Assembly (NCBI GenBank): GCA_944389455.1
Contig: CALXMK010000027.1
Coordinates: 1-32,224 of the forward strand
Direction of reading: 5' to 3'
Source: an uncultured Verrucomicrobiota bacterium
GTDB taxonomy: Bacteria; Verrucomicrobiota; Verrucomicrobiia; Limisphaerales; UBA1412
Length of the DNA: 32,224 nucleotides
The translations under genes and the position numbers were made by a program. Numbering within the stretch: the stretch's first letter is position 1; every line of letters starts with the position of its first letter. Of the stretch, positions 1 to 28,665 are shown in pieces. The notes beneath the pieces are model-generated. The model had not been told where the DNA came from, did not search any database, and was given only the letters and a program-made list of their open reading frames with translations.

Positions 1-384
1 TTTGTTCTTTTGCATCATACAGTTATTACTTTAATATAGTCTACTAATCTTTTACGGTCTTTTCTCTACTGCCGTATTCCCAAAGATTAATCCTTGGAAA
101 CTCTCCCCTCCGCTTTCGCTTCGCTTCAACAGACCGACCGCTCCGTCTGCGGCAATTCGGTATTTTCTTAATGCTTCCCACACAAAAACTGTTAAGTCTC
201 CCTTAAAACAGAATTGGTTATAAGCACACATTAAGTCTAATCCCATTGAGAATAATAGCATTTCTATTATGCTAATACAACTTTTTAGTTTGTAATTGTT
301 ACAAATCTCAAAAGCTCTTAATTTTTATAGTTTTAAAAAATCAAAATCCTCTCCATAAAATGTCTCATAGATATATGCCGAAAC
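1..384. other. Region without a convincing gene
   Basis: This stretch lies downstream of the GH106 gene. A minus-strand reading frame of 69 codons (261 down to 52) is open, but I do not recognise its product, it has no clear ribosome binding site, and it crosses a GC-richer block at about 95-165 inside AT-rich DNA. A 6-bp hairpin (256-261 with 269-274, 7-base loop) overlaps the start of that frame and is too weak to call a terminator. It could be a degraded gene, a small unknown gene or a dispersed repeat; nothing here decides between them. Confidence 0.3.
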
Positions 385-3741: not shown

Positions 3742-5097
3742 TTAATTTTTAGTTTCAATTTCTTTAATTGGAATATCTCCTAAAGAAGATACGGTTTCTT
3801 TATCCTCCTGGTTTTCATCCATATACTTTTTAAACTCTGATTCTAACCATGGAGGGATACGGACAAAAAATTTTCCTACACTCCCATTTTCATAATTAGC
3901 GTTTACCACTTGAGCTACAGCATGAAGCCGTGCGATAACGGCAGAATCCGTATAGGGAATTTTTAGTTCACAAGCAATGCGGATAGGCCGAAGCATGGAG
4001 CCTATTTCTGCCATTAATTCCGGAAATCCTTCGCGAGTCTTAGCTGATATGGCAACTACATGCGGATAGAGTTCCTGCATTCTTTTAACTTCCAACCCAC
4101 AGCCAGGTTTATCTATTTTGTTCAGTACCATTAATGTCGGTTTCTCGTGAGCTTTTATTTCCGCCAGAGTTTGATTGACACTTTCAATCTGTTCTTGAGC
4201 CAGCGAATGACTAATATCTACCACATGTAACAGAACATCGGCCCTTACTACCTCTTCCAACGTCGCTTTAAATGAATCAACTAATTGATGAGGTAATTTA
4301 CGGATAAATCCGACCGTATCAGAAAGAAGTACATTCTGGTTTGTTGGTAAACGCAATCGGCGGGTTGTAGGATCCAATGTGGCAAAGAGTTTATCTTCCG
4401 CTAGAATTCCTGCTCCCGTCAGTGAATTAAAGAGGGTTGATTTACCTGCATTAGTATAACCTACAATTGAAGCTAACGGCCAGAGATTTCTTCTCCGTCC
4501 TTCGCGGCGGGTAGAGCGTTGTCTTTGAACCAAATCCAGTTCTCGACGAATCCGATCAATCCGCTCTTGAACTTTTCGTCGGTCCGCTTCCAGCTGAGTT
4601 TCTCCTTCACCTCCTCGCATTCCGATTCCTCCCTTTTGACGGGAGAGATGCGTCCAATAACCGGTCAATCTAGGTAAGAGATGCTGAAGCATGGCCAATT
4701 CTACTTGTAGTTTCCCTTCACGAGTTTGAGCACGCTGGGCAAAAATATCTAAAATAAGAGAGGTTCGATCTAATATCTTACATTTGAAAATTTCTTCCAA
4801 ATTCCGAGATTGTGCCGGACTGAGTTCATCATCAAAAATGACGGTATCTATATTACGACTGCGGCAATCTACCGCAAATTGCTCTGCTTTCCCCGAGCCA
4901 ATAAAAGTCGCTGCATGAGGTTTCTCTAAAACCTGTAAACCGGTATCAATAACTGTTCCTCCTGCTGTTTTAGCTAACTCCGCCAATTCAGAAAGAGATT
5001 CTTGAACTTCATAAGCCGTCCGGCTGGAGAATTGTGCTCCAATTAGAAAAACACGTTCTGTTTTGGACGTAGTATTGGTTGTAACCAGTGCCTTCAT
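3742..5097 (-). CDS. hflX: Ribosome-associated GTPase HflX
   Basis: The 451-residue protein has the full HflX layout. An N-terminal HflX domain covers about 15-180, with the conserved GGEGETQLE stretch at 162-170, and is followed by a basic linker helix. The GTPase domain carries G1 GYTNAGKST (213-221), G3 DTVG (260-263) and G4 NKID (326-329). HflX binds the 50S subunit and in other bacteria splits stalled or heat-damaged ribosomes. A C-terminal extension of about 80 residues ends in an acidic, lysine-rich tail. It follows miaA by 55 bases on the same strand; miaA-hflX adjacency is common in bacteria (there often with hfq between them, which is absent here). Confidence 0.96.
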   Translation of the reverse strand: MKALVTTNTTSKTERVFLIGAQFSSRTAYEVQESLSELAELAKTAGGTVIDTGLQVLEKPHAATFIGSGKAEQFAVDCRSRNIDTVIFDDELSPAQSRNLEEIFKCKILDRTSLILDIFAQRAQTREGKLQVELAMLQHLLPRLTGYWTHLSRQKGGIGMRGGEGETQLEADRRKVQERIDRIRRELDLVQRQRSTRREGRRRNLWPLASIVGYTNAGKSTLFNSLTGAGILAEDKLFATLDPTTRRLRLPTNQNVLLSDTVGFIRKLPHQLVDSFKATLEEVVRADVLLHVVDISHSLAQEQIESVNQTLAEIKAHEKPTLMVLNKIDKPGCGLEVKRMQELYPHVVAISAKTREGFPELMAEIGSMLRPIRIACELKIPYTDSAVIARLHAVAQVVNANYENGSVGKFFVRIPPWLESEFKKYMDENQEDKETVSSLGDIPIKEIETKN

Positions 5098-5152: not shown

Positions 5153-6151
5153 TCAACAGAGAGAAGAGTCTATTTTCCTTTGAGATTTTTCAATAAAAAA
5201 ATAATATTTTCGTTCAATTTCTTTTGCCAACTTTTCTATTTGTTCAGAAACTGTGAAAGTTTCTCCATAGTCCATTTGTCCTCTAAACCAGGTTCTTTGA
5301 CGTTTGGCAAATTGCCGGGTTCGGATTTTGATCTCTTCCTTCGCCTCTGATAAAGATTTTATTTCTCCTCTTAAATAAGCAGCAATTTGCCTGTACCCGA
5401 TGGCCTGCATGGCCGTTTTATTTTTTTCTAGACCTTGTTTGAGCAAAAAACAAGTTTCCTCTACAAGTCCTTGTTCAAACATTCGTTCTACTCTCAGATT
5501 GATTCTCTGTATAAGTTCTTCTTTTTCCCTTTGAAGAATGAATAAAAAAGGTTTTGTGCCGGATTCATATCCTTTCCAACATATATTCTTTAAACTAGCT
5601 GATTTCCCCGTAATTAGAAATATTTCTAGTGCTCTTTCTACACGTCTGCGATTTTTCAAATCTATTCTTTGAGCAGAAGTCGAGTCTTTTTGTAAAAGCA
5701 TCTTTTGCAGTTCTTCTAAGCTTAGCGAAGATAAACGTTCTCTTATTTTATTGGAGGGAGGAGGTACCGATGCTAATCCTTCTAACCAAACCTTAAAATA
5801 CATTCCCGTTCCTCCGCAAAAAATAGGAATTTTTCCGTAGGATTGGATTTTTTTCACTGCCGAGGATGCTTCTGTTATAAATGAAGCCGCGTCAAATTGT
5901 TCTTCTATTTCTCGTATATCAATAAGATAATGAGGAATTGATTCACGGATTTTCAAGGAAATTTTATCAGTTCCTATATCCAAACCCCGGTATACTTGCA
6001 TACTGTCTACACTGATAATTTCTCCTCCAAGTCGTTTTGCTACTTCCAAAGCCAGAGCAGATTTTCCGGAAGCTGTTGTTCCAGTAATATAAATAGCCTG
6101 AAGGGAAGCTCTCTGCTCCAGAGAAAGGATATTATCCATCCTGTTCGGCAT
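5153..6151 (-). CDS. miaA: tRNA dimethylallyltransferase MiaA
   Basis: This enzyme transfers a dimethylallyl group to A37 of tRNAs that read codons starting with U, the first step toward ms2i6A. The 332-residue product has the P-loop GTTASGKS (24-31), the conserved DSMQVYRG (49-56), a GGTGMY motif in the middle and the C-terminal RTRQFAKRQRTWFR stretch typical of the family. Its ATG overlaps the end of lspA by 20 bases, so the two are translationally linked. Length is slightly above the usual 300-320 residues because of an extended C-terminal tail. Confidence 0.97.
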   Translation of the reverse strand: MPNRMDNILSLEQRASLQAIYITGTTASGKSALALEVAKRLGGEIISVDSMQVYRGLDIGTDKISLKIRESIPHYLIDIREIEEQFDAASFITEASSAVKKIQSYGKIPIFCGGTGMYFKVWLEGLASVPPPSNKIRERLSSLSLEELQKMLLQKDSTSAQRIDLKNRRRVERALEIFLITGKSASLKNICWKGYESGTKPFLFILQREKEELIQRINLRVERMFEQGLVEETCFLLKQGLEKNKTAMQAIGYRQIAAYLRGEIKSLSEAKEEIKIRTRQFAKRQRTWFRGQMDYGETFTVSEQIEKLAKEIERKYYFFIEKSQRKIDSSLC

Positions 6152-6677: not shown

Positions 6678-7790
6678 TTAAGCTGTCGGAGGTCTCATCG
6701 GCATCACGACAAACTTACTGTTTTCTTTTGCTCTCAACAGGGCTGGACTAAATTCATCGTTAATTTCCAGATAGATTTCACTGTCATCTAATGTCTTCAG
6801 AGGATCCATCAAAAATGTAGGATTAAAGGAAATAACTATTTCTGGTCCTTCATGATTGATCATTAAGGTTTCTTTAGCTTCACCTACTTCTGCCGAATGA
6901 GAGGAAATTGTTAGTTGATTATTTCCAAAGGAAAGATTAACGATATGGCTACGCTCGCTTGTCATTAATTCCGCACGTGCAACTGCGTTGAGCAATTCCT
7001 CACGGCTTAACGCCAATGAATGCTTAAGTTCGACCGGCACTACTTGACGATAATTCGGATAAGTTCCTTCCATAAGTTTGCTGATCATCTTAACCTTGAT
7101 ATTCTTTTCCCCTTCAATGAAGAAGGATATCTGTCTATTTTCCCAGCAGATTTTGGCGCTTCCACTTGTAGAGAAGAGTTTCCTAAGTTCGCCAACCGTC
7201 CTGGAAGGAATAATGCATTGGCCGTTGCCAGAAAAAGAATCTACTTTGTCTTCACATAAAGCCATCCTTCGTCCATCGGTAGCAACTGTAGTCACTATAT
7301 CTCCTTCTACAGTAAAATACATACCGTTGAGGACCATCCTGTTATCTTCTTGAGACATGGCAAACGCAGTTCTTTCTACCATTCTCTTCATCTTTGAAGT
7401 AGGAATAATAATAAATTGCGTTTCATCTATTTGAGGAATAACAGGAAAATCTTCTGGAGGTAATCCGAATAATTTAAAGTAAACTGATCCTGATTCAATC
7501 GTACATTGATGGCTTTCATTAATATCTAAAGAAATTAATGGTGTGGGAAGTTTACCCACAATCTGAAAAAATCTTTTCGCCGGCAAAGTTGTTGCTCCCT
7601 GTACTTCTACATTGGCTTTAACAGTACAAATAATGGTCATATCCATATTGGTACCTGTAATTTCCAATTCGTTCTCTTTTGTCTTCAAAAGGACATTAGA
7701 AAGGACTGGGAGAGGCTGTCTTTCTGAAATGGCGCTTTGAACGGCTTGAAGACCGGCAATTAGATGCTCTTTAGCAATAGTGAATTTCAT
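6678..7790 (-). CDS. dnaN: DNA polymerase III beta sliding clamp
   Basis: Ring-shaped processivity clamp that tethers DNA polymerase III to DNA. The 370-residue length is standard. The N-terminus (MKFTIAKEHLIAGLQAV, then LPVLSNVLLK) and the C-terminal FVVMPMRP are family hallmarks, and three clamp domains fit the length. It heads the run dnaN-lspA-miaA-hflX-GH106. In many bacteria dnaN lies beside dnaA and oriC. Here dnaA is not in the window, but the 256 bases upstream carry four DnaA-box matches, so its promoter may be DnaA-regulated or the origin may lie there. Confidence 0.97.
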   Translation of the reverse strand: MKFTIAKEHLIAGLQAVQSAISERQPLPVLSNVLLKTKENELEITGTNMDMTIICTVKANVEVQGATTLPAKRFFQIVGKLPTPLISLDINESHQCTIESGSVYFKLFGLPPEDFPVIPQIDETQFIIIPTSKMKRMVERTAFAMSQEDNRMVLNGMYFTVEGDIVTTVATDGRRMALCEDKVDSFSGNGQCIIPSRTVGELRKLFSTSGSAKICWENRQISFFIEGEKNIKVKMISKLMEGTYPNYRQVVPVELKHSLALSREELLNAVARAELMTSERSHIVNLSFGNNQLTISSHSAEVGEAKETLMINHEGPEIVISFNPTFLMDPLKTLDDSEIYLEINDEFSPALLRAKENSKFVVMPMRPPTA

Positions 7791-7928
7791 GGTTCGATTT
7801 TTCTCTGTCGATCAGATCAATCGAGAAAGATAATACTCTATTCTTTTTTAAATGAAAAGGTGTTATTAATATGCGAAGTGAATATCTGAATAACTTCTAT
7901 AAATATCTGATAAAAAGTAAATTAAAGT

Positions 7929-7947
7929 TGTGTAAAAGTGTGAATAA
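7929..7947 (-). promoter_or_regulatory. Paired DnaA boxes, left arm
   Basis: Reading the minus strand, TTATTCACA (7947-7939) fits the strict pattern TTATNCACA and TTTTACACA (7937-7929) fits the relaxed pattern. They are in the same orientation, 10 bases apart. This is the left arm of an inverted repeat with 7986-8004. Confidence 0.65.
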
Positions 7948-7985
7948 CATTGAGAAAGAACTCCGTAAAAAAGTCAATTAGTCTG

Positions 7986-8004
7986 TTTTTCACACTTATT
8001 CACA
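7986..8004 (+). promoter_or_regulatory. Paired DnaA boxes, right arm
   Basis: On the plus strand, TTTTTCACA (7986-7994, relaxed match) is followed at one helical turn by TTATTCACA (7996-8004, strict match). The arrangement mirrors the left arm at 7929-7947. Confidence 0.65.
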
Positions 8005-8046
8005 AGTTTTTCTTTTTCTATAAACAAGTTATTCGGAAAGATATTA

Positions 8047-8553
8047 TCAAAGGTTGTTTAGGCAATCTTGATTGGCTATGCCTTTTTTCGTTTGATTAGT
8101 GCGAAACTCTTCCCACGCAGCACGAATTTCAGGATATTTAAGTCCCAAAATAGACGCTGCAAACAGTGCAGCATTGATAGCTCCGGGTTTACCAATTCCT
8201 AAGGTTCCGACAGGAATACCTCCCGGCATCTGAACAATTGAAAGAAGAGAATCCATCCCTTTGAGATATTTACTTTCCATTGGAACTCCTAAGACAGGAA
8301 GAGTCGTTTTAGCAGCAGTAACTCCCGGTAAATGAGCTGCCCCTCCTGCCCCAGCGATAATAACTTCCAATCCTCGTCTCGTGGCAGATGAAGCATATTC
8401 TGCCAATAGATCAGGAGTGCGGTGCGCTGAAATAACTTTAACTTCAAAAGGAATACCCAGAGCTTTGAGGGTATCGGCAGCATTTTTCATTACTTCCCAA
8501 TCGGAAGTGCTGCCCATGATAATTCCAATCAGGTTTTTTTTTGTTTCACTCAT
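8047..8553 (-). CDS. purE: N5-carboxyaminoimidazole ribonucleotide mutase PurE (class I)
   Basis: Converts N5-CAIR to CAIR in de novo purine synthesis. The 168-residue product shows the class I motifs in order: MGSTSDW near the start, [22 protein letters not shown] and [10 protein letters not shown]. The partner carboxylase gene purK is not in the window; it may lie elsewhere, or the protein may work with CO2 directly. The gene begins 14 bases after the phosphodiesterase gene on the same strand, so the two are probably co-transcribed. No strong Shine-Dalgarno sequence is visible, which is common among the genes here. Confidence 0.96.
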
Positions 8554-8567
8554 AATAGGATAAGAAA

Positions 8568-9059
8568 TTAAAAGATAATGGGATTTTCCGGCAACCCATC
8601 TTCAGTGTCCAGAATGGCACAAGTAGATTTGCCGGTCAATACTCCGCTCAATTCTCCTGGGTTAATGAATCGTGTTTTTCCTTCTATTCCAATTTCATAT
8701 TGGTGATTATGGCCAAAGCAGAAAATATCATACCATCCACTAGCGATGATAGGACGAGCCAGGTTGTCATAATGGATGAATCCTATTCTTTTATTCGCCA
8801 ATATGATATCTCCTATTTCAGGGTACATTTTTATCTGGGGAAAGTTTTGCGAATTTTGAGTTATGCGGAAAATATCAGCATCATTATTGCCTAAAACCAG
8901 ATGAATCTCCTTATTATAGTGAGTTCCCAGTTCTCGGATAACAAAAGGAGAGCAAAGATCGCCGCAGCAAATAAGAGCATCTGTTTTTTGTAAAATATCC
9001 AAAGCCTTCCGAAGAATATCTACCTTGTCATGGATATCAGAGATAATACCTAATTTCAT
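8568..9059 (-). CDS. YfcE/MJ0936-family metallophosphoesterase
   Basis: The 163-residue protein is a single calcineurin-like metallophosphoesterase domain. The metal-binding motifs appear in order: D-x-H in SDIHD (about 8-12), GD in CCGDL (about 38), GNND (about 57-60), a histidine in GFIHYD and GHNH (about 116-119). Members of this small family hydrolyse phosphodiesters in vitro and most have no assigned physiological substrate. It sits directly upstream of purE and is the first gene of the pair. The family call is confident; the substrate is unknown. Confidence 0.9.
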
Positions 9060-9350
9060 AAATATTTTTGGATTAATATTGGAAGCGATATTTTTGAGGG
9101 GATATCGCTATCTTTTTATCCTACTTTTTACTTTCCTAAAAGTCGATAAAGGATTCATGATTTTATAAATCTCTTTTTAAAAATAAATTCTTTTTATCAA
9201 TATTTTTCTTTTTGGAGAACTTTTTTCGGCAGAAGAAGAAATTTGTATTTTCTTTTTTATAGAAAAATCAGGAGAAAAAATGAAAGAATAACAAAAAGAA
9301 AAAGGATTTTTATTCTTGAAACGGAAGAAACTATGGTTTAAAAAAACGCT
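9060..9350. other. Divergent AT-rich intergenic region with a perfect inverted repeat
   Basis: This lies between the minus-strand phosphodiesterase gene and the plus-strand nfeD-like gene, so it should contain both promoters. The one clear structure is an 8-bp perfect inverted repeat, AGCGATAT (9084-9091) and ATATCGCT (9102-9109), with a 10-base loop. It would sit in the leader of the minus-strand transcript about 25-50 bases before the start codon. It could be an operator, a leader hairpin or chance. No DnaA box or confident -35/-10 pair was found. Confidence 0.4.
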
Positions 9351-26709: not shown

Positions 26710-28665
26710 GTGAACAGGTTTCCTAAGGATTATGATGTGATTGTTGTTGGAGCAGGACATGCCGGGATTGAAGCTGGTTTGGCAGCTGCTCGTTTAGGGG
26801 CACAGACGTTGCTATTGACTTTAAATATGGATACTATCGGTCAGCTTTCTTGTAATCCCGCCATGGGTGGTTTAGCTAAAGGACATCTTGCCCGTGAAAT
26901 TGATGCTATGGGAGGGGAGTTGGGAAGACTGACAGATCTCTCTGCGATTCAATTTCGAATGCTTAATATGCGCAAGGGACCTTCGGTTCGAGCTCAACGG
27001 GCTCAGTGTGATAAGAAATGGTATCAGTTTCTTTGTAAATGGGTCTGTGAGCAGGAGCCTAATCTGGACCTGAAACAGGCGAAGGTGACTGGGCTTCTTC
27101 TTGAAAAAGGGAAAGCGGTTGGAGTGAGAACTTCACTTCAGATGGATTTTTATGGGAAAACAGTCATTGTGACAACAGGAACTTTCCTTCGAGGGTTAAT
27201 GCATATCGGTTCTAATCAGATTCCAGGAGGACGTTTGGGAGATGGAACTGCAGAAGAGCTTTCGGGGTCCCTGCGTGAGGCGGGTTTAACTTTGGGGCGA
27301 CTCAAAACGGGAACACCTTGCCGACTAAATCGACGTTCCATTGACTTTTCAAAATGCACGGTTCAGCCGGGGGAAGAACCGATTCCTTGGTTCAGTTATT
27401 GGCATGACGAACTCTTTTCGGAACGATATCTTCCCTATCCGCTTCGTGAAAAATTGAATGGAAAAAATTCTGGGGGCGGATATCCTCCAGGATCTGTATT
27501 AGCCAGAGCAGGGGGGCAAGTTCCTTGTTACATCACGATGACAACTCCGGAGACAAAAAAAGTAATCCAAGAGAATCTGCATAAATCTCCTCTCTTTTCC
27601 GGAGTAATACAAGGGGTAGGACCTCGGTATTGCCCTTCAATCGAAGATAAAATCGTCAAATTTGCGGATAAGGAGCAGCATCAGCTCTTCTTGGAACCGG
27701 AGGGAATTCTTACGGAGGAGATTTATGTAAACGGATTTTCCAGTTCCCTTCCTTTTGAGGTCCAGCTCCAGATGATTCGTACGGTTATCGGCTGCGAACA
27801 TGCCGAGGTGATGAGGCCTGCTTATGCCGTAGAATATGATTATGCGGATCCTACACAGCTTTTCCCTTCACTGGAAACGAAATGTTGTGAGAATCTGTTT
27901 TTGGCGGGGCAAATTAATGGAACCTCTGGATATGAGGAGGCTGCCGCTCAGGGGTTGATGGCTGGACTCAATGCCGCACGAAAACTTTCCGGCAAACCCC
28001 CGATTATTTTACGACGCGATCAGGCTTATATAGGGGTGTTGATAGATGATTTAGTTACACTGGGAACGCGGGAGCCTTATCGGATGTTTACTTCGAGAGC
28101 GGAGTATCGGTTAATACTTCGGCAGGATAATGCGGATGAACGGCTTTGTCAAATCGGATATGAGGCCGGATTGCTTCCTGAAAGATTCTACCGCAGATTT
28201 CTCGAGAAATCGGATAAAATCGAGAAGGAACTCCGGCGTTTAGAAGAAACACGAGATGGAGGGATTCCCTTAAAGAGGCTACTTAAAAGGCCTGAAATAA
28301 ATTATCGTGATTTACCTGGGTGCGATCCAGAATTGGAAGAGGAAATTGCCGAACAGGTGGAAATCCAAGTGAAGTATGAAGGATATATTCAGCGACAGGA
28401 GGAGGAGATTCGTAAATTCCGGACATTAGAGAGTAAGCAGATTCCGAATTGGCTTGATTATCATTCTATTCCCAGTCTGAGTTATGAGGGAAGACAGAAG
28501 CTTTTGCAGATTCGTCCGACAACCTTGGGGCAGGCAGGAAGGATTTCTGGAGTTACGCCGGCGGATGTAAGCCTGTTGGCGGTATGGATGAAGAGGGGGA
28601 ATCCTGAGACTTTTTCAGAAAAAACATCTTTAGAGAATGTGAAGAAATCTGAAGAAGAGGAATAA
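26710..28665 (+). CDS. mnmG: tRNA uridine-5-carboxymethylaminomethyl modification enzyme MnmG (GidA)
   Basis: With MnmE, this FAD enzyme adds the cmnm group to C5 of the wobble uridine U34 of certain tRNAs. The 651-residue product begins at GTG with GGAGGA 9 bases upstream. The FAD dinucleotide-binding GAGHAGIEA follows at about 13-21, then [14 protein letters not shown] (about 47-60), [11 protein letters not shown] and the C-terminal [24 protein letters not shown] region. Length is slightly above the usual 620-630 because of a charged tail. mnmE and rsmG are absent from the window. Its place next to parS matches the origin-proximal gidA-gidB-parAB neighbourhood of many bacteria. Confidence 0.97.

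What the first reader, a model, noticed from the sequence alone, without database searches (positions are those of the whole stretch)
7929..8004. Symmetric DnaA-box cluster beside dnaN: candidate oriC
Two DnaA-box pairs, each with one strict match (TTATTCACA) and one relaxed match at 10-base spacing, face each other as a 19-bp inverted repeat with only three mismatches. Four boxes in 76 bases, phased by one helical turn and sitting in an AT-rich gap upstream of dnaN, are hard to explain by chance. Either this is the replication origin in a lineage where dnaA has moved away, or it is a DnaA-controlled dnaN promoter.
Basis: partly seen in the sequence, partly recalled or inferred. Interest (0 to 1): 0.82.

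Follow-up and report, generated by a model that had tools for sequence, protein, structure and literature searches.

The report
Replication origin beside dnaN, without dnaA
This stretch of DNA beside the sliding-clamp gene dnaN is likely the place where an uncultured Verrucomicrobiota bacterium starts copying its chromosome, although the gene for the starter protein DnaA sits on a different contig.

Summary
In detail: four DnaA-box matches lie at 7929-8004 as two tandem pairs forming a 19-bp inverted repeat with 3 mismatches. The most likely function is oriC. In samples covering 53% of the rest of the genome, no other contig shows a minus-to-plus GC-skew change; dnaA lies on contig C4 with positive skew on both sides. 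The four-box array is lineage-specific: four genus relatives keep one of its boxes. In sister lineages dnaA sits just upstream of dnaN, so dnaA probably left while the origin stayed.

Against: finer skew mapping favours points between 7.7 and 9.2 kb and does not centre on the boxes; the dnaA promoter has its own conserved box array, without clear trios; most relatives have skew too weak to test. Synechococcus elongatus has a comparable dnaN-linked oriC, so this is a new member of a known kind. DnaA binding and initiation are untested.

The parts
7929..7937 (-). DnaA box TTTTACACA (left pair, distal array)
   Evidence: no aligned counterpart in G001-G004
7939..7947 (-). DnaA box TTATTCACA (left pair); aligned counterpart in all four genus relatives that have dnaN
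7986..7994 (+). DnaA box TTTTTCACA (right pair)
   Evidence: not conserved
7996..8004 (+). DnaA box TTATTCACA (right pair)
   Evidence: not conserved
7885..7893 (-). Predicted unwinding element, first box TTATTCAGA (1 mismatch)
7877..7885 (-). Predicted unwinding element, second box ATATTCACT (2 mismatches), overlaps the first by one base
7860..7876 (-). Spacer TCGCA (7872-7876) and DnaA-trio-like run TATTAATAACAC (7860-7871), facing dnaN
   Evidence: alignment with G001-G004 and order motif
7791..8046 (.). dnaN-purE gap, 73% A+T: predicted oriC
6678..7790 (-). dnaN (DNA polymerase III beta clamp)
8047..8553 (-). purE, gene on the other side of the gap

Best explanation
The dnaN-purE gap is most likely the chromosomal replication origin: DnaA would bind the two paired box arrays and load from them onto a predicted unwinding element (7860-7893) beside dnaN, opening the AT-rich DNA there. 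Shown by sequence: the boxes and their symmetry, a skew change within about 1 kb on either side, dnaA on another contig, and an order-wide box-spacer-trio motif upstream of dnaN. Inferred: that DnaA binds these sites; that the four boxes act as a distal array raising local DnaA concentration by looping, as proposed for incC of Bacillus subtilis; that opening starts at the trios and proceeds toward dnaN; and that dnaA left an ancestral dnaA-oriC-dnaN block in this order while the origin stayed with dnaN.
For: Skew: among samples of 1,386,216 bases outside the window (52.9% of the genome) no other contig turns from minus to plus, and C6 turns from plus to minus (terminus-like). Change-point log-likelihood gain in the window 85-117. 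Conserved motif: box (up to 1 mismatch), 2-7 nt, two TAN trios at -57 to -85 of dnaN in 22 of 30 order loci, 0 of 30 antisense, 0 of 30 reversed, shuffle mean 0.08. The genus relatives carry it too, even where other sequence separates dnaN from purE (G001, G004). Window copy: 3 TAN trios 13 nt after a 1-mismatch box and 5 nt after the overlapping second one; such runs follow 0.5% of positions. Distal boxes lie 44, 54, 101 and 111 bp from the first box, centre to centre; in B. subtilis a distal box needed at least 44 bp, showed helical phasing and worked in both orientations (PMC6669920 section 6). dnaA lies directly upstream of dnaN in 29 of 113 loci, none of them among the 25 order loci or the 9 loci titled Limisphaerales, Pedosphaera or subdivision 3.
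Against: The window's own motif is degenerate and fails the strict scan that 22 of 30 loci pass; a 2-mismatch scan gives 11 hits in the window, so it rests on conservation. Change-point estimates are 9214, 7692 and 8467 by site set; at 7870 the log-likelihood is 8.3, 3.2 and 5.0 below the best and at 7966 10.5, 6.4 and 5.0 below, all beyond the 1.92 limit. Gene orientation turns at 9060-9350, not at the boxes. In larger contigs of relatives a sign change at dnaN is seen in G026 and G003 but not clearly in G018, G041, G054, G044, G012, G027 or G001. dnaA promoters of the order have their own conserved box array. No binding or replication data.
Confidence: 0.8

Rival explanations
1. The boxes and the conserved motif are only a DnaA-controlled dnaN promoter, and the origin lies elsewhere. 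DnaA would time dnaN expression as it may other box-bearing genes.
For: Box clusters also sit upstream of dnaA, mraZ and an SMC-like gene, none at a skew change. A TTGACA sequence recurs shortly before the dnaN motif in many order loci (by eye), so promoter and motif may overlap.
Against: Only this cluster coincides with the skew change. Trio runs with a fixed C-rich spacer are not expected of an operator, and they are absent behind the dnaA arrays in the six genus sequences (by eye).
Confidence: 0.09
2. The origin is the next gap, 9060-9350, between the divergent genes yfcE-like and nfeD-like; the boxes at dnaN only regulate.
For: Gene orientation turns there; the all-base change point is 9214, 95% support 8657-9272; 76% A+T.
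Against: No site with up to 1 mismatch to TTATNCACA in that gap. yfcE already has right-arm third-position skew, +0.23. Codon-independent sites favour 7119-8558, with 9200 6.6 log units worse.
Confidence: 0.06
3. The origin is at the box array upstream of dnaA on contig C4, as in many bacteria.
For: A triple tandem array is present in 6 of 6 genus genomes, and an antisense box or tandem about 0.26-0.34 kb upstream of dnaA in 28 of 30 order loci, the other 2 having a misplaced dnaA start (my count). Three of 30 of these loci (L048, L056, L068) have a box, AGT and TATTAA.
Against: Skew is positive on both sides over all of C4. No TA-trio run follows the genus arrays (by eye). Autoregulation of dnaA explains the array.
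Confidence: 0.05

Closest known systems
Synechococcus elongatus PCC 7942 oriC (PMC3480399 and PMC7198777, passages seen)
   Same: Origin in the gap next to dnaN, many DnaA boxes, dnaA elsewhere in the genome, near a skew shift
   Different: 11 boxes with consensus TTTTCCACA there; here four boxes in two divergent tandem pairs, another phylum, no experiment
incC / basal unwinding system (BUS) of Bacillus subtilis (PMC6669920, PMC8287927; passages and one section each)
   Same: Box, short spacer, NAN trios on the dnaN side, with distal boxes at least 44 bp away
   Different: There dnaA is directly upstream; seven boxes in incC; here the proximal boxes are degenerate and the distal array is symmetric
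dnaA-dnaN locus of L191 (record titled Candidatus Auribacterota)
   Same: Two divergent box pairs (-298/-287 and -221/-210), then a box followed by TAC repeats, then dnaN, near a local skew minimum
   Different: dnaA is still upstream; pairs are 11 bp apart and all four boxes read TTATCCACA; homology of the pairs not tested

Membership tests
DnaA-dependent bacterial oriC | Cluster of DnaA boxes in an AT-rich intergenic region | tested here: met
DnaA-dependent bacterial oriC | Lies at the genome's skew minimum | tested here: met
   Met at contig and few-kb scale; at sub-kb scale the estimates disagree
DnaA-dependent bacterial oriC | Bound by DnaA and initiates replication | not testable with these tools
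   No experiment
BUS (basal unwinding system) | DnaA box, spacer of at most 16 bp, at least three NAN trios (rule in PMC8287927) | tested here: met
   Window: 13 nt after box 1, then TAT TAA TAA. The NAN rule alone is met by 28-34% of window positions, so it is weak; the TAN form (0.5%) is also met
BUS (basal unwinding system) | Conserved at the same position in relatives | tested here: met
   22 of 30 order loci at up to 1 mismatch (the window not among them), 26 of 30 at 2 mismatches with 1 antisense and 2 reversed hits
BUS (basal unwinding system) | DnaA- and trio-dependent strand opening | not testable with these tools
   No experiment
Canonical dnaA-oriC-dnaN block | dnaA immediately upstream of dnaN | tested here: not met
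   dnaA on C4, dnaN on C27

The most novel reading that the evidence does not exclude
In the order Limisphaerales the initiator gene left the ancestral dnaA-oriC-dnaN block while oriC stayed locked to dnaN. In this lineage the origin then gained a symmetric, two-sided DnaA launch pad, two divergent tandem box pairs that could nucleate DnaA filaments in both directions, while a separate conserved array keeps the distant dnaA gene autoregulated.
Probability: 0.3. Interest if true: 0.68.

Novelty: new member of a known kind. Interest (0 to 1): 0.5.

Why it matters
Origins are usually sought beside dnaA. In this mostly uncultured order that rule would likely point to the wrong place. A box-spacer-trio signature at dnaN, seen in most of the 30 order loci examined, offers a sequence rule for finding oriC in fragmented assemblies, and the order is a natural test of whether an origin needs its initiator gene nearby. 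The genome also shows that DnaA-box clusters alone mislead: richer ones lie at dnaA, mraZ and an SMC-like gene.

Tried and rejected
Box density as the deciding test: rejected, because dnaA, mraZ and an SMC-like gene have more exact boxes.

Skew around dnaN in relatives as a general test: inconclusive. Exact localisation by change point: site sets disagree.

A mirror-image unwinding element on the purE side: after 8004 the loose rule passes (14 nt, TATAAACAA), but that rule passes at 125 of 230 positions on that strand of the gap and the TAN test fails; rejected as evidence. No trio run follows the left pair.

The divergent array found in G437 lies next to mraZ, not dnaN. The single-protein dnaN search in genome contigs confirmed no relative; the alignment search did.

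Literature: searches for oriC with Verrucomicrobia, Akkermansia, Limisphaera or Planctomycetes listed no paper whose title or shown abstract start describes an origin of this order; those papers were not opened. The main text of PMC8287927 holds no 'Verrucomicrobi'; its supplement, which may list such genomes, was not available. DoriC was not consulted, so an existing prediction cannot be excluded.

Rows left out: one search prints 75 of 80 named loci (L130, L131, L145, L160, L178 dropped for short upstream sequence). One search prints 72 of 110 dnaN loci. One search uses the 30 loci delivered (L010-L039), own window included, of 52 genomes with a dnaN match. Searches use the 30 dnaA loci delivered of 53 genomes with a match. 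The 113 loci overlap: at least four stretches repeat genomes already in the list. One search stopped with an error at C42 (no G or C in it) after printing C1-C41. One planned control, the divergent-array pattern over the order, never ran; locally, none of the other 29 order dnaN loci shows more than two TTWTNCACA sites in its roughly 4 kb.

Full report
Setting. The window is the whole of contig C27 (32,224 bases) of a 2.62-Mb, 42-contig genome, 93% complete. Named dnaN relatives are Verrucomicrobiota, several of the nearest titled Limisphaerales, Pedosphaera or Verrucomicrobia subdivision 3, so I read the order as Limisphaerales (inference). On the minus strand: a GH106 rhamnosidase-like gene, hflX, miaA, lspA, dnaN (6678-7790), the gap, purE (8047-8553) and a yfcE-like gene (8568-9059); plus-strand genes follow from 9351.

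Observation. Four boxes form two tandem pairs, 10 bp start to start, making a 19-bp inverted repeat with 3 mismatches. No shuffle of the gap in 4000 holds four such sites. The array occurs once in this genome and in 2 of 387 phylum genomes, own included; the other case, in G437, lies next to mraZ. That sample held one other member of the order; among the 29 other order dnaN loci none has more than two TTWTNCACA sites.

Skew. Per kilobase the skew is -0.11 to -0.22 over 1-7 kb, -0.03 to -0.04 over 7-9 kb, and mostly +0.1 to +0.28 from 9 to 30 kb (23-24 kb +0.03), with -0.02 in the last two. Samples of the other contigs keep one sign each within noise, except C6, which goes from plus to minus irregularly; the small contigs C39-C41 are near zero and C42 has no G or C. 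A pair of changes hidden in unsampled stretches cannot be excluded. Contig C4, with the dnaA domain at 108,215-108,694 of 142,185, is positive throughout. At finer scale the change point is 9214, 7692 or 8467 depending on sites, and the box positions score 3.2 to 10.5 log units below the best. By gene, third-position skew is -0.23 to -0.17 up to miaA, +0.09 in lspA, -0.06 in dnaN and purE, +0.23 in yfcE and +0.33 or so after that. The gap lies inside this transition; skew alone does not choose between it and 9060-9350.

The missed element. Aligned upstream regions of the genus show a second conserved block nearer dnaN: a box-like sequence, a C-rich spacer and TAATAATAA. Across the order it reads, for example, TTATTCACA-CCCCT-TAATAATAAG, at -57 to -85. 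With up to 1 mismatch 22 of 30 loci have it in sense, 0 antisense, 0 reversed, shuffle mean 0.08 of 30; with none 15, 0, 0; with two 26, 1, 2. The window, G001 and G004 are among the 8 that fail at 1 mismatch. This is the layout called BUS (PMC8287927, passages and part of the Results; PMC6669920, passages and section 6). In the window it is TTATTCAGA (7885-7893), overlapping ATATTCACT (7877-7885), TCGCA, TATTAATAACAC (7860-7871), on the minus strand facing dnaN. A 2-mismatch scan gives 11 such hits in the window, so only position and conservation single it out.

Role of the four boxes (inference). In B. subtilis incC a distal box had to lie at least 44 bp upstream of the proximal box, worked in either orientation, showed helical phasing and is thought to loop (PMC6669920 section 6). 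Here the distal boxes lie at 44, 54, 101 and 111 bp. The array is local: G001-G004 have an aligned counterpart of the 7939-7947 box only; G005 had no dnaN hit.

Where dnaA went. In 113 partly overlapping loci, tblastn with the own DnaA finds dnaA near dnaN in 30: 29 upstream on the same strand (27 of them between -1157 and -2157; one at -3435; one at -441, cut by the contig end) and one, L119, at -3043 on the other strand. The 29 include records titled Chthoniobacterales, Spartobacteria, Verrucomicrobiaceae, Kiritimatiellaeota and Auribacterota. None of the 25 order loci (about 1.5 kb upstream each) and none of 9 loci titled Limisphaerales, Pedosphaera or subdivision 3 (one with 2 bp upstream) has it. 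In 48 order-sample genomes where both genes were found, own included, only G034 has them on one contig, 9.4 kb apart (my count). In the own genome contig ends put dnaA at least about 39 kb from dnaN. The simplest history is an ancestral dnaA-oriC-dnaN block from which dnaA departed (inference; no tree was built).

dnaA keeps its own array. Six of six genus genomes have a triple tandem array upstream of dnaA, and 28 of 30 order dnaA loci an antisense box or tandem about 0.26-0.34 kb upstream. This is as conserved as the dnaN motif and is the best point for an origin at dnaA. Against it: no skew change on C4 and no TA-trio run in the genus arrays; three order loci have a short one (box, AGT, TATTAA). 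With box clusters at mraZ and an SMC-like gene it suggests a DnaA regulon (inference).

Comparison. Synechococcus elongatus has oriC beside dnaN with dnaA elsewhere (PMC3480399, PMC7198777; passages). This is therefore a new member of a known kind, in another phylum, with an unusual symmetric distal array. L191 (Auribacterota) has a similar divergent pair layout with dnaA in place; homology is not claimed.

Not shown: DnaA binding, unwinding, initiation. Confidence that the origin is in the dnaN-purE gap is 0.80.

Noticed in passing
L003 and L009 (G000:C4:107232-107750); L324-L328; L047-L076: Conserved DnaA-box array upstream of dnaA: triple tandem in 6 of 6 genus genomes, antisense box or tandem in 28 of 30 order loci.
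   Followed up: partly
L322 (G000:C5:45731-45919); L319 (G437): Seven box matches (three exact), one orientation, just upstream of mraZ; a divergent array also sits next to mraZ in G437. DnaA may control the division cluster.
   Followed up: partly
L323 (G000:C11:26281-26399): Three exact boxes upstream of an SMC-hinge protein gene.
   Followed up: partly
L191 about 5480-5576: Auribacterota record with two divergent pairs of TTATCCACA, 11 bp apart, then a box with TAC repeats before dnaN, dnaA upstream, local skew minimum at 5060.
   Followed up: partly
upstream regions L015-L039: TTGACA recurs shortly before the dnaN motif in many order loci, so a dnaN promoter may overlap the predicted unwinding element.
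   Followed up: no
window 26710-28665: mnmG (gidA), an origin neighbour in some bacteria (recalled), lies 19 kb from the predicted origin.
   Followed up: no
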